Shown here one piece after another: positions 30,162 to 32,700 of a DNA stretch of 32,700 nt. The notes under the pieces were generated by a model that worked only from the letters and a program-made list of their open reading frames with translations, was not told where the DNA came from and made no database searches. Source of the DNA: Comamonadaceae bacterium (GTDB lineage Bacteria; Pseudomonadota; Gammaproteobacteria; Burkholderiales; Burkholderiaceae_C); NCBI GenBank assembly GCA_013823485.1, contig PNMF01000020.1, positions 1 to 32,700 of the forward strand, written 5' to 3'. The first letter of the stretch is position 1, and every line of letters starts with the position of its first letter. Both the position numbers and the translations under genes were made by a program.

Positions 30162-32237
30162 GTGACCTACCGGGCAGGTGAACCTGCATCCCCTCTGGCG
30201 GACCTTGACTTCATTCCGAGAGACCCCGCAGCGGTCGAATCCGAGTTGCGCCATGTGCACGCCCTGATGCAGCTGGAGCAGAAGGAAGACCAGGCGCAGT
30301 TCAAGCTCAAGAGTGCCCAGGCGGGCATCCAGGAGCGCAAGCGGCGGGGCATCACCTGGCATCCGGTCGTCATCACCCGCGAAGACATCGGTTTTGGCGG
30401 CAAGCTGGTGCTGGAACTGGAGCGCCCGGCCCATCAGGAAGGCCTGCACCTGTTCCAGGTCGGCAGGAACGCGGCCCTGTTCGGCCCGGTGCAGGGGCAT
30501 GCGACGTCGGAGCAGCCCACGCTGGGGGGCGTCATCACCGGCGTGCGGCGCAACAAGCTGCTGCTGACCACCACCCGGGAAGACCTGCCCGACTGGGTGC
30601 TGGAGGGCGGCAAGCTGGGCATCGACCTCACCTTCGACGAGGTGAGCTACCGCGAGATGAACCAGGCCATGAACGAGGTGCTGCGCGCCCGCGGCAACCG
30701 GCTGGCCGAGCTGCGCGACGTGCTGCTGGGTGCCCGGCAGGCCCGCTTCGATGAGCCCAGGCCCGACGACCTGTTCTACCCCGGCCCGCTCAACGATTCG
30801 CAGCAGGCGGCGGTGCGCCATGTGATCGCGGCCCGCGACGTCGCCATCATCCACGGCCCGCCCGGCACCGGCAAGACCACCACCCTGGTGCAGGCCATCC
30901 GGGAGACCATCCGCCGCGAGCGGCGCGTGCTGGTGTGCGCGCCCTCCAACACCGCAGTCGACCTGCTGACCGAGAAGCTGGCCGGGCACGGCGTCAGGGT
31001 GATCCGCATGGGCAACCCCAGCCGCGTGTCCGACCTGCTGCTGGAGCACACGCTCGATGCCCGGGTGATGGCCCACCCCGGCCACAGCCGGATGCGTGCG
31101 CTGCGCCAGACCGCCGACCAGTACCGCCAGAGCGCCACGCAGTACCTGCGCCATTTCGGCCCTGAGGAGCGGCAGCAGCGCCAGAGGCTCAAGGAGGAGG
31201 CGCGGCAGCTGTTCCTGCAGGCCGACGATCTGGAGCGTTTCATCACCGCCGACGTGCTCGACTCGGTGCAGGTCATCACCTGCACCCTGGTCGGTGCGAG
31301 CCACCGCAACCTGCGCGACCTGAGCTTCGAGACCGTCTTCATCGACGAGGCCGCCCAGGCCATCGAACCCGGTTGCTGGATTCCGATCGCCAGGGGTCAG
31401 CGCGTGGTGCTGGCCGGCGATCACCACCAGCTGCCGCCCACCGTGAAAAGCGAGAAGGCGGCCCGCGAGGGCCTGCGCGAAACCCTGTTCGAGAAATGCA
31501 TCCAGCGGCAGCCGGCCACGGCCCGGATGCTCACCGTGCAGTACCGCATGCACGAGCAGATCATGGCGTTCAGTTCCCGGCAGTTCTATGGTGGCCAGCT
31601 GCGGGCGCATGAGTCGGTGCGCCAGGCCGGCCTGGCGGCCCACGACCCGGCCTTCGGGCCCGACCTGCCGGTGGAGTTTCTCGACACGGCGGGCTTCGGC
31701 TTTCTGGAGATCACCGTGCCCGAAAGCCGCTCCACCGCCAACCCGGAAGAGGCAGACCTGCTGCTGCGGCGCCTGACCCGGCTGCTGGCGCCCTGCGACC
31801 CCACCCGGCAAGAACATCGGCACGAAGACCGGCCGCTCACCATCGGCGTCATTGCCCCCTACCGCGCACAGATCAACTGCCTGAAGGACGCCATCGAACA
31901 GACCCCCGGGCTGGGCAGCCTGATGCAGCAACGCCTGCTCAGCGTGGGCACGGTCGACTCATTCCAGGGCCTGGAGCGCGACATCATTGCGATCTCGCTG
32001 ACGCGCAGCAACCACCTGGGCGAGATCGGTTTCCTCTCCGACATCCGTCGGATGAACGTGGGCATGACCCGCGCCCGCCGCAAGCTGTTGCTGGTCGGTG
32101 ACTCGTCCACCCTGGGTGCCAATCCGTTCTTCCAGGCGCTGCTGGCCCATGTGCAGCAGATCGGTGGCTACCGCACCGCCTGGGAGCTGACGGAAGAATG
32201 CCCGCCGGCTGCGTCCAGTTGGTGCGCCAGCGACTGA
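30162..32237 (+). CDS. SF1B DNA/RNA helicase, IGHMBP2/SMUBP-2-like
   Basis: A 691-residue superfamily 1 helicase of the Upf1-like group. All ATPase motifs are present: Walker A HGPPGTGKTTTLV (231-243), Walker B VFIDEAAQAIEP (about 392), motif III LAGDHHQLPPTVKSEK (about 417), motif IV QYRMHEQIMAFSS (about 460), motif V TVDSFQGLERDIIAIS (about 597) and motif VI GMTRARRKLLLVGD (about 633). The N-terminal 200 residues include a beta-barrel-like 1B region (HPVVITREDIGFGGKLVLELERP). The start is GTG at 30162; a later start cannot be excluded, because no ribosome binding site stands out and a hairpin precedes it. It likely unwinds nucleic acid 5'-3' in DNA repair or RNA metabolism. The preceding small basic gene may be cotranscribed. 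Confidence 0.92.
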   Translation: MTYRAGEPASPLADLDFIPRDPAAVESELRHVHALMQLEQKEDQAQFKLKSAQAGIQERKRRGITWHPVVITREDIGFGGKLVLELERPAHQEGLHLFQVGRNAALFGPVQGHATSEQPTLGGVITGVRRNKLLLTTTREDLPDWVLEGGKLGIDLTFDEVSYREMNQAMNEVLRARGNRLAELRDVLLGARQARFDEPRPDDLFYPGPLNDSQQAAVRHVIAARDVAIIHGPPGTGKTTTLVQAIRETIRRERRVLVCAPSNTAVDLLTEKLAGHGVRVIRMGNPSRVSDLLLEHTLDARVMAHPGHSRMRALRQTADQYRQSATQYLRHFGPEERQQRQRLKEEARQLFLQADDLERFITADVLDSVQVITCTLVGASHRNLRDLSFETVFIDEAAQAIEPGCWIPIARGQRVVLAGDHHQLPPTVKSEKAAREGLRETLFEKCIQRQPATARMLTVQYRMHEQIMAFSSRQFYGGQLRAHESVRQAGLAAHDPAFGPDLPVEFLDTAGFGFLEITVPESRSTANPEEADLLLRRLTRLLAPCDPTRQEHRHEDRPLTIGVIAPYRAQINCLKDAIEQTPGLGSLMQQRLLSVGTVDSFQGLERDIIAISLTRSNHLGEIGFLSDIRRMNVGMTRARRKLLLVGDSSTLGANPFFQALLAHVQQIGGYRTAWELTEECPPAASSWCASD

Positions 32238-32247
32238 TCTCGGTGCA
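32221..32247 (+). promoter_or_regulatory. Possible NtrC-type upstream sites
   Basis: Two GGTGC half-sites (32221-32225 and 32242-32247, the second GGTGCA) are exactly 21 bases apart, two helical turns. NtrC sites contain GGTGCA half-sites, and these lie about 90-115 bases upstream of the predicted start, where enhancer sites usually sit. Neither has its matching inverted half, so confidence is low. Confidence 0.25.
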
Positions 32248-32308
32248 TCCGCTCGCCCGCGCCCGCTTTTGAACAGGGCGAAACGGGCCTGGGGCGGGCC
32301 GAAACGGG

Positions 32309-32326
32309 TGGCACACATCCTGCTTT
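32309..32326 (+). promoter_or_regulatory. Sigma-54 (-24/-12) promoter for the guanidine-riboswitch transcript
   Basis: TGGCACACATCCTGCTTT fits the -24/-12 consensus TGGCAC-N5-TTGC: GG at 32310-32311 and GC at 32322-32323 with exactly ten bases between. Transcription would begin near 32335, about 50 bases before the riboswitch core. Sigma-54 promoters are typical for nitrogen-assimilation genes. Confidence 0.7.
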
Positions 32327-32380
32327 GAGGAAAGCGTGCATGGAGAGCGGTCTGCAACTGTCGGTTGCGGCAGCCAGTGC

Positions 32381-32480
32381 GTAGGTTCACTAGGGTTCCG
32401 TCTGCGGTGACGCAGGGTCTGGTCCGAGAGTGGGCCGGCCTCGCCAGAGGCTCCACGGAGGGACAAAAGCCCGGGAGAAC
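32381..32480 (+). ncRNA. Guanidine-I (ykkC) riboswitch aptamer
   Basis: The conserved blocks of the ykkC class appear in order: CTAGGGTTCCG (32390-32400), a GNRA-capped stem CTGCG-GTGA-CGCAG (32402-32415), CTGGTCCGAGAG (32419-32430), a variable stem GCCTC-GCCA-GAGGC (32438-32451), and CCACGGAGGGACAAAAGC then CCGGGAGA (32453-32478). GTTC (32385-32388) can pair with GAAC (32477-32480) to close the outer stem. The class binds guanidine and usually switches on export or degradation genes; ppGpp- and PRPP-binding variants share the scaffold, but the downstream ABC binding protein argues for guanidine. Confidence 0.93.
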
Positions 32481-32499
32481 GACATCAGATCGGTTCTCC
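32474..32499 (+). promoter_or_regulatory. Expression-platform hairpin of the riboswitch
   Basis: GGAGAAC (32474-32480) can pair with GTTCTCC (32493-32499). Since the first arm is also needed for the aptamer (the conserved GGGAGA and the closing stem), the two structures exclude each other. There is no T-tract, so it probably does not end transcription in the usual way; how the ribosome binding site at 32520-32523 (GGAG) is affected is unclear. Confidence 0.6.
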
Positions 32500-32530
32500 T
32501 GCGCGCATCCCTCACCACTGGAGCTTCATC

Positions 32531-32700
32531 ATGAAACTGGCAGGCATCTTCTCCTTCTCCTCAGGCGGTTCGGCTTCTTCCCCTGTCTCGTCCTGGCGAG
32601 CGCGGCTGCTCAAGCCCGCGCTGGGCGTGGCGCTGGCCCTGGGTGCTGCATCCAGCATGGCCGCCGGCCCCACCACCATGAAGATCGGCACCGTGGTGTG
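32531..32700 (+). CDS. ABC transporter substrate-binding protein, 5' part (guanidine-riboswitch regulated)
   Basis: The first 56 codons of a gene running off the window. A long exported leader (basic RARLLK then LGVALALGAASSMAAG) precedes KIGTVVW, the opening strand of nitrate/taurine/sulfonate-type binding proteins. Such proteins beside guanidine-I riboswitches are commonly annotated as urea- or nitrate-like transporters and sit next to guanidine (urea) carboxylase genes, which would be expected just past the window. The ATG at 32531 has GGAG 7 bases upstream. Importing guanidine or its products for nitrogen is the likely role, but only the N-terminus is visible. Confidence 0.8.
   Translation, partial: MKLAGIFSFSSGGSASSPVSSWRARLLKPALGVALALGAASSMAAGPTTMKIGTVV

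What the first reader, a model, noticed from the sequence alone, without database searches (positions are those of the whole stretch)
32309..32560. Sigma-54 promoter placed directly upstream of a guanidine-I riboswitch
A -24/-12 promoter with exact GG-N10-GC spacing (32310-32323) predicts a transcript starting near 32335, just before a clear ykkC-class aptamer and an ABC binding-protein gene. This gives two layers of control: general nitrogen status through sigma-54, then guanidine itself through the RNA. Guanidine as a nitrogen source is known, but a nitrogen-limitation promoter wired to this riboswitch is a specific, testable regulatory circuit.
Basis: partly seen in the sequence, partly recalled or inferred. 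Interest (0 to 1): 0.72.

Follow-up and report, generated by a model that had tools for sequence, protein, structure and literature searches.

The report
Nitrogen-starvation promoter feeding a guanidine riboswitch
A promoter type used when nitrogen runs short sits just in front of an RNA sensor for guanidine, and the same pairing recurs in most of the related bacteria examined, so these bacteria probably take up and use guanidine only when nitrogen is scarce and guanidine is present.

Summary
TGGCACACATCCTGCT (32309-32324) is the window's only hit with at most one mismatch to a sigma-54 consensus. It ends 54 nt before a guanidine-I aptamer at 32379-32479 (84.1 bits), itself followed by a binding-protein gene start at 32531. 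It occurs in 46 of 53 families sampled, in 0 of 30 named leaders from four other phyla, and before 1 of 30 TPP riboswitches. Features not used for selection agree: a pyrimidine-purine step at the predicted start (115 of 177), a start at or before the aptamer's first stem base in 175 of 177, and NtrC-type dyads upstream in beta- and gammaproteobacteria. A published ntrC mutant loses expression of an operon with this gene order. I found no description of the pairing in my searches, but two key papers were not held. In this window the NtrC site is weak; in alphaproteobacteria none was found. Nothing was measured.

The parts
32309..32324 (+). sigma-54 type -24/-12 promoter element TGGCACACATCCTGCT
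   Evidence: sequence; only hit with at most 1 mismatch; TGGCAC and TGC invariant in five SBP leaders of the family while flanks differ; conservation
32336..32336 (+). predicted transcription start (G after C32335)
   Evidence: inferred from the pyrimidine-purine step at this distance in 115 of 177 leaders; not mapped
32211..32225 (.). weak NtrC-like dyad GCGTCCAGTTGGTGC, 2 mismatches of 10, centred about -117
   Evidence: lies inside the upstream gene; uncertain
32173..32187 (.). weak NtrC-like dyad GCACCGCCTGGGAGC, 1 mismatch of 10, centred about -155
   Evidence: lies inside the upstream gene; uncertain
32337..32378 (+). leader between start and aptamer with a predicted hairpin, a feature of betaproteobacterial leaders
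   Evidence: fold of this leader; mean z -1.6 to -2.1 in beta groups, -0.08 in control segments
32379..32479 (+). guanidine-I riboswitch aptamer (RF00442)
   Evidence: 84.1 bits, full model 1-107
32472..32501 (+). hairpin that uses the aptamer's 3' strand; probable expression platform, no U-tract
   Evidence: fold; no terminator-like site
32520..32523 (+). GGAG, probable ribosome-binding site
   Evidence: sequence
32531..32700 (+). start of an ABC-transporter substrate-binding protein gene, cut by the contig end
   Evidence: Pfam NMT1 for the full-length relative L022
30162..32237 (+). upstream neighbour: AAA_11/AAA_12 helicase gene, not part of the circuit

Best explanation
This is a two-input control region for using guanidine as a nitrogen source. 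When nitrogen is short, phosphorylated NtrC activates sigma-54 RNA polymerase at 32309-32324 and a transcript starts at about G32336. The RNA then folds the guanidine-I aptamer. With guanidine bound, the aptamer keeps its 3' strand, the competing hairpin at 32472-32501 does not form, and the transporter gene and those behind it are expressed. Sigma-54 promoters are silent without an activator, so the output should need low nitrogen AND guanidine. Shown here: the element, the aptamer, and the conservation of their pairing, placement and start signature. Inferred: that sigma-54 and NtrC act here, the ON direction (from the known class) and that the genes handle guanidine. Unresolved: whether the platform acts on transcription or on translation.
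For: Element present in 177 of 203 non-redundant proteobacterial leaders and 46 of 53 families, against a shuffle mean of 4.9 (maximum 11) of 206, 164 of 10,539 other windows, 3 of 206 on the opposite strand, and 7 and 10 of 206 with spacing 9 or 11 instead of 10. Pyrimidine-purine step at the predicted start in 115 of 177 (15 to 64 at the other offsets examined). Predicted start at or before the first aptamer-stem base in 175 of 177, one base in for the other two, and no element starting from -14 onward into the aptamer in 155 loci. NtrC dyads with the NtrC spacing in 17 of 22 (family), 49 of 59 (other beta), 60 of 77 (gamma); other spacings 2-12, 7-19, 8-28. Own genome has RpoN, NtrC and a second guanidine-I leader with an element. 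0 of 30 leaders from other phyla; 1 of 30 TPP riboswitches. Four of four named plasmid operons fetched afterwards have aptamer and element. B. cenocepacia ntrC mutant: urea carboxylase I35_7286 log2 -6.0, I35_7283 and I35_7285 no reads (PMC5491218, table passages seen).
Against: No wet evidence in this organism. The NtrC-like sites in the window are weak and lie in the upstream gene. Alphaproteobacteria have the element but 0 of 19 have the dyad and no substitute was found. 26 of 203 leaders lack the element, several in genomes with RpoN that I cannot explain. The platform has no U-tract and a test for pairing with the ribosome site was negative, so the second layer's mechanics are open. A 2026 genome paper suggests a LysR-type regulator for one guanidine-I operon from its neighbouring gene (PMC13296017, passage seen).
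Confidence: 0.82

Rival explanations
1. The promoter is sigma-54 dependent, but the activator is not NtrC: another enhancer-binding protein answers a different signal, here or in some lineages.
For: Weak dyads in this window; 0 of 19 alphaproteobacterial leaders have the dyad, no other dyad stands out there; the own genome encodes further NtrC-like proteins below the NtrC cut-off.
Against: Dyad enrichment at exactly the NtrC spacing in family, beta and gamma groups, peaking about 60-140 nt upstream of the -12 box; published NtrC dependence in B. cenocepacia.
Confidence: 0.12
2. The element is a chance match, and the leader is transcribed from a sigma-70-type promoter or by read-through from the helicase gene.
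For: The helicase gene is on the same strand and ends 71 nt before the element; some leaders without the element have sigma-70-like sites, for example L131 and L198; one base of the -12 box departs from the consensus.
Against: No sigma-70-like site in 32150-32600; conservation far beyond chance; a relative of the same genus keeps the element with different flanks.
Confidence: 0.05
3. Control is by a locally encoded regulator (for example LysR-type), with sigma-54 adding little.
For: Proposed from a neighbouring gene for one Ectopseudomonas operon (PMC13296017, passage seen).
Against: The helicase gene, not a regulator, is the neighbour in this window; LysR-type regulators normally work with sigma-70 promoters (established knowledge), whereas the conserved element is the sigma-54 type. 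I did not survey the neighbouring regulators.
Confidence: 0.03

Closest known systems
Guanidine-I (and guanidine-II) controlled guanidine carboxylase operons of enterobacteria and others (reviewed in PMC12186494, passages seen)
   Same: Same aptamer class, same gene set (importer, carboxyguanidine deaminase, then guanidine-II before carboxylase), use as nitrogen source.
   Different: The review passages name no sigma-54 or NtrC promoter; here a sigma-54 element precedes the aptamer and is conserved across most proteobacterial families sampled.
NtrC/sigma-54 nitrogen-scavenging operons (for example the urea and nitrate genes of Burkholderia cenocepacia, PMC5491218, passages seen)
   Same: -24/-12 promoter, upstream NtrC-type dyads, nitrogen-starvation genes; its regulon includes a urea-carboxylase cluster of the same order.
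   Different: Those reports describe no RNA sensor behind the promoter ('riboswitch' does not occur in that paper's main text).
Cyanobacterial glutamine riboswitch of a gene that is also under the nitrogen regulator NtcA (recalled, from no call)
   Same: A global nitrogen regulator and a riboswitch on one transcript.
   Different: Other regulator, other RNA, other ligand, not sigma-54.

Membership tests
Guanidine-I riboswitch (RF00442) | Match to the covariance model over the curated cut-off, full length | tested here: met
   84.1 bits against 63, model positions 1-107
Guanidine-I riboswitch (RF00442) | Binds guanidine and turns expression on | not testable with these tools
   Known for the class (review passage); not measured here
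Guanidine-I riboswitch (RF00442) | Expression platform that competes with the aptamer's 3' strand | tested here: inconclusive
   Hairpin 32472-32501 predicted, fold not better than shuffles over that stretch (z -0.20), no U-tract
sigma-54 promoter | GG and GC ten bases apart in a near-consensus context | tested here: met
sigma-54 promoter | Conserved among orthologous leaders at a place that suits transcription | tested here: met
sigma-54 promoter | RpoN encoded in the genome | tested here: met
   G000:C80:11943-12413, E 2.7e-63; only part of the gene was covered by the open frame reported (201 aa)
sigma-54 promoter | Transcription lost without RpoN | not testable with these tools
   needs a mutant
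NtrC regulon | NtrC encoded in the genome | tested here: met
   G000:C6, 622.4 bits against a cut-off of 558.6
NtrC regulon | NtrC-type dyads upstream of the promoter | tested here: inconclusive
   Strong enrichment in family, beta and gamma leaders, none in 19 alpha leaders, weak sites only in this window
NtrC regulon | Induced by nitrogen starvation through NtrC | not testable with these tools
   Published only for an operon of the same gene order in B. cenocepacia

The most novel reading that the evidence does not exclude
In Proteobacteria the guanidine-I riboswitch is in effect an RNA extension of the nitrogen-starvation (sigma-54) system: nearly every leader of a guanidine-assimilation operon starts at a sigma-54 promoter, and start site and aptamer are fitted to each other (in alphaproteobacteria the RNA starts 4-9 nt before the first aptamer stem). 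The coupling is missing where it would make no sense: in ammonia oxidizers, in Rhodobacteraceae without RpoN, and before guanidine exporters.
Probability: 0.72. Interest if true: 0.68.

Novelty: new variant of a known kind. Interest (0 to 1): 0.62.

Why it matters
Why so many bacteria sense guanidine is still debated: toxin to be pumped out, or food. A starvation promoter in front of most proteobacterial guanidine-I riboswitches says that these operons serve nitrogen supply, and suggests that some clusters annotated and studied as urea carboxylase systems under nitrogen control are guanidine systems. It offers a simple, widely testable AND gate of a global activator and a riboswitch. It also gives a practical warning: tests of these riboswitches in their native context in ammonium-rich medium may show nothing because little transcript is made.

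Tried and rejected
Chance match: rejected by shuffles, other windows, opposite strand and wrong spacing.

Constant promoter-aptamer distance: not so, it varies by lineage.

Mistakes on the way: one search read minus-strand loci in the wrong orientation; one search repeated it correctly (22 of 22). In one search the position window ended at -30 and so missed elements at -20 to -27 (all alphaproteobacterial ones and some gamma ones); searches use -130 to -15.

Pairing of the aptamer's 3' half with the ribosome site: tested in 72 leaders, no better than a control segment (mean 15.3 against 15.4); left open.

NtrC-type motif in alphaproteobacteria: none found.

Guanidine-III as a further contrast: 0 of 185 genomes have it, so no test.

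Limits of the counts: only 30 of 50 TPP matches were fetched and scanned. RpoN was searched in 60 of the 111 genomes with a match. The six loci below the Rfam cut-off were left out; none has an element. One leader counted as negative has only 61 nt upstream (L125). Outside the position window, two of the 30 non-proteobacterial leaders have a lowest-score site and one a better one, at -139, -229 and -242. The score weights were set by me from a recalled consensus.

Literature searched; opened for passages: PMC12186494, PMC12508155, PMC11410670, PMC10746234, PMC11930936, PMC5491218, PMC5748707, PMC7801951, PMC7011215, PMC3766115, PMC9723704, PMC8390497, PMC13296017. Other listed papers were seen as listings only. 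Only open-licence PubMed Central papers are held; two central papers were not held, so a mention there cannot be excluded.

Full report
What is in the window. The window is a whole contig (G000:C20) of a fragmented genome, 88.8% complete. Near its right end a helicase gene stops at 32237. Then come a -24/-12 element at 32309-32324, a guanidine-I aptamer at 32379-32479 and the start of a binding-protein gene at 32531, cut by the contig end. The element has one mismatch to TGGCACNNNNNTTGCW and is the only such hit in the window; hits with up to three mismatches are no more frequent than chance. No sigma-70-like site was found between 32150 and 32600. The genome has RpoN, NtrC and a second guanidine-I leader with its own element.

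Is it more than chance? I collected guanidine-I leaders from genomes of the family (16 of 200 with a match), order (32 of 250), class (29 of 369) and phylum (43 of 398; the four samples overlap in a few genomes). With the 83 named aptamers this makes 238 records. After removing 4 duplicates, 30 non-proteobacterial records and one without upstream DNA, 203 proteobacterial leaders remain, and 177 have an element (GG-N10-GC and a score of at least 12.7 of 15.2) starting between -130 and -15 of the aptamer. In the unnamed set 46 of 53 families have it at least once and 41 at every locus. On the set before full removal of duplicates (179 of 206), dinucleotide shuffles give a mean of 4.9 and a maximum of 11, other windows of the same loci 164 of 10,539, and the opposite strand 3 of 206; changing the spacing from 10 to 9 or 11 drops the count from 179 to 7 or 10.

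Independent signs of a real promoter. Aligned on the element, the bases 26 and 27 after its start form a pyrimidine-purine step in 115 of 177 leaders, against 15 to 64 at the other 21 offsets examined. The family (16 of 22), gamma (61 of 78) and alpha groups (16 of 19) show it at one offset; other betaproteobacteria split it over two neighbouring ones (22 and 27 of 58). This was not used to select the elements. With that base as the start, the RNA begins at or before the first base of the first aptamer stem in 175 of 177 leaders and one base inside it in two; in alphaproteobacteria it begins 4-9 nt before the stem; no element starts from -14 onward into the aptamer in 155 loci. A promoter placed without regard to the RNA would not respect that border.

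The activator. GCACC-N5-GGTGC, the NtrC dyad (consensus recalled), with at most 2 mismatches of 10, occurs 45-160 nt upstream of the element in 17 of 22 family, 49 of 59 other beta and 60 of 77 gamma leaders; other spacings of the same half-sites give 2-12, 7-19 and 8-28. The sites peak about 60-140 nt upstream of the -12 box. Alphaproteobacteria have 0 of 19, and no clear substitute was found, so their activator is open. In the window the dyads are poor: one mismatch at -155 and two at -117, both inside the helicase gene.

Where the pairing is missing. None of 19 Firmicutes, 7 cyanobacterial, 3 actinobacterial and 1 Campylobacterota named leaders has the element. Within Proteobacteria, RpoN was absent from 3 of 60 genomes searched, all in one family (f263) and all without the element; one of the three has only a below-cut-off riboswitch. 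That family is Rhodobacteraceae, as a locus of it is identical to a named one (L160 and L207). A fourth f263 genome has weaker RpoN matches but no element. All 6 leaders of family f16 and all 3 named Nitrosomonas or Nitrosospira leaders lack it, although the five f16 genomes have RpoN. That f16 is the ammonia oxidizers is inferred from 83% and 68% protein identity to two of the named loci; first genes there are a permease (5 loci) and a carboxylase (1). For cells that live on ammonium a starvation promoter would be pointless; that is my inference. Other exceptions include a weak site (L167), a more distant one (L062), a sigma-70-like site (L131) and several that I cannot explain.

Controls with other riboswitches. 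In genomes with guanidine-I, 1 of 30 TPP riboswitches had a site passing the same test, at the lowest passing score. Of 17 guanidine-II loci, the 6 in front of short exporter-like proteins (named by eye from length and sequence) have none, one of them with only 67 nt upstream. Of 9 in front of a carboxylase-like protein (also by eye), one has a close site and one a distant one. Of 2 in front of a desaturase-like protein, one has it. Five of the 9 carboxylase-type loci lie 3-5 kb downstream of a guanidine-I leader on the same contig, so they need no promoter of their own. The promoter therefore goes with use of guanidine rather than with guanidine sensing as such, on small numbers.

Genes controlled. 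Taking the longest ORF that starts within 500 nt, and naming clusters by one or two representatives, the genes after guanidine-I are mainly NMT1/SsuA-type binding proteins (94 of 159), permeases (18), DUF1989 proteins (8), ABC ATPases (6), arginase-family proteins (5) and amino-acid-type permeases (5). Four named plasmid loci, fetched of 235 records with a similar binding protein, all have a guanidine-I aptamer with an element, followed by binding protein, permease, ATPase, UAAP1 and UAAP2; in the two read further on, guanidine-II and then a gene annotated urea carboxylase follow. One, Caballeronia sp. NK8, has a perfect NtrC dyad at -121.

Published expression. In PMC5491218 (table rows and passages seen) an ntrC mutant of Burkholderia cenocepacia loses expression of I35_7283 (urea carboxylase-related binding protein, no reads), I35_7285 (no reads) and I35_7286 (urea carboxylase, log2 -6.0), and 95% of the top 150 NtrC-dependent genes also depend on sigma-54. 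The authors count it under urea use; the word riboswitch does not occur. The gene order fits the loci above; I did not see the H111 sequence, so a riboswitch there is an inference.

Is it in print? Ten searches gave no paper that I could see to describe a sigma-54 or NtrC promoter in front of a guanidine riboswitch; one search matched 1,095 papers, of which 5 were listed. The 2025 review has no mention of sigma factors or NtrC. One 2026 genome paper suggests a LysR-type regulator for a guanidine-I operon. Two central papers were not held.

How it most likely works. NtrC under nitrogen starvation opens the sigma-54 promoter; the aptamer then reads guanidine and allows expression when it is bound. 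The platform is probably a hairpin at 32472-32501 that uses the aptamer's 3' strand; it has no U-tract, so an effect on transcription or on translation cannot be told apart, and a test of pairing between aptamer and ribosome site was negative. Betaproteobacterial leaders also carry an extra hairpin between start and aptamer (mean z -1.75, -2.08 and -1.57 in three groups against -0.08 for control segments; gamma groups -0.78 and -0.06), often with GAGAGG two to four bases into the RNA. Its role is unknown.

Verdict. It joins two known parts in a way I could not find described: a new variant of a known kind.

Noticed in passing
L137, L319, L324; own genome L004 (G000:C119) 798-1808: Fatty-acid-desaturase-like proteins follow a guanidine-I (L137) or guanidine-II (L319, L324) aptamer; a relative (39-47% identical) lies about 6 kb upstream of the own genome's second guanidine-I leader. 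Possibly an oxygenase acting on a guanidine compound.
   Followed up: partly
window 32337-32378 and beta leaders: Extra hairpin between predicted start and aptamer in betaproteobacterial leaders, often with GAGAGG at +2 to +4; absent in alphas, where there is no room.
   Followed up: partly
L128, L129, L161, L162: Below-cut-off guanidine-I-like RNAs in front of EamA-type transporters, without a sigma-54 element; perhaps another ykkC subtype with a different ligand.
   Followed up: no
G805 (L073): The RpoN DNA-binding domain matches as two pieces in different frames, and this genome's guanidine-I leader lacks a good element; sequencing error not excluded.
   Followed up: no
L017, L051: First gene after guanidine-I is an outer-membrane receptor with a TonB plug domain (Pfam for L017; L051 by clustering), with a sigma-54 element: a possible outer-membrane port for guanidine compounds.
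   Followed up: no
L334 (Serratia proteamaculans plasmid NZ_MT039215.1): A guanidine operon on a conjugative plasmid has two guanidine-I aptamers of equal score about 1.07 kb apart, each after a copy of the same small hypothetical gene, and a nifH-annotated gene after the carboxylase.
   Followed up: no
alphaproteobacterial leaders: They carry the sigma-54 element but no NtrC-type dyad within 45-160 nt upstream (0 of 19); their activator is unknown.
   Followed up: partly
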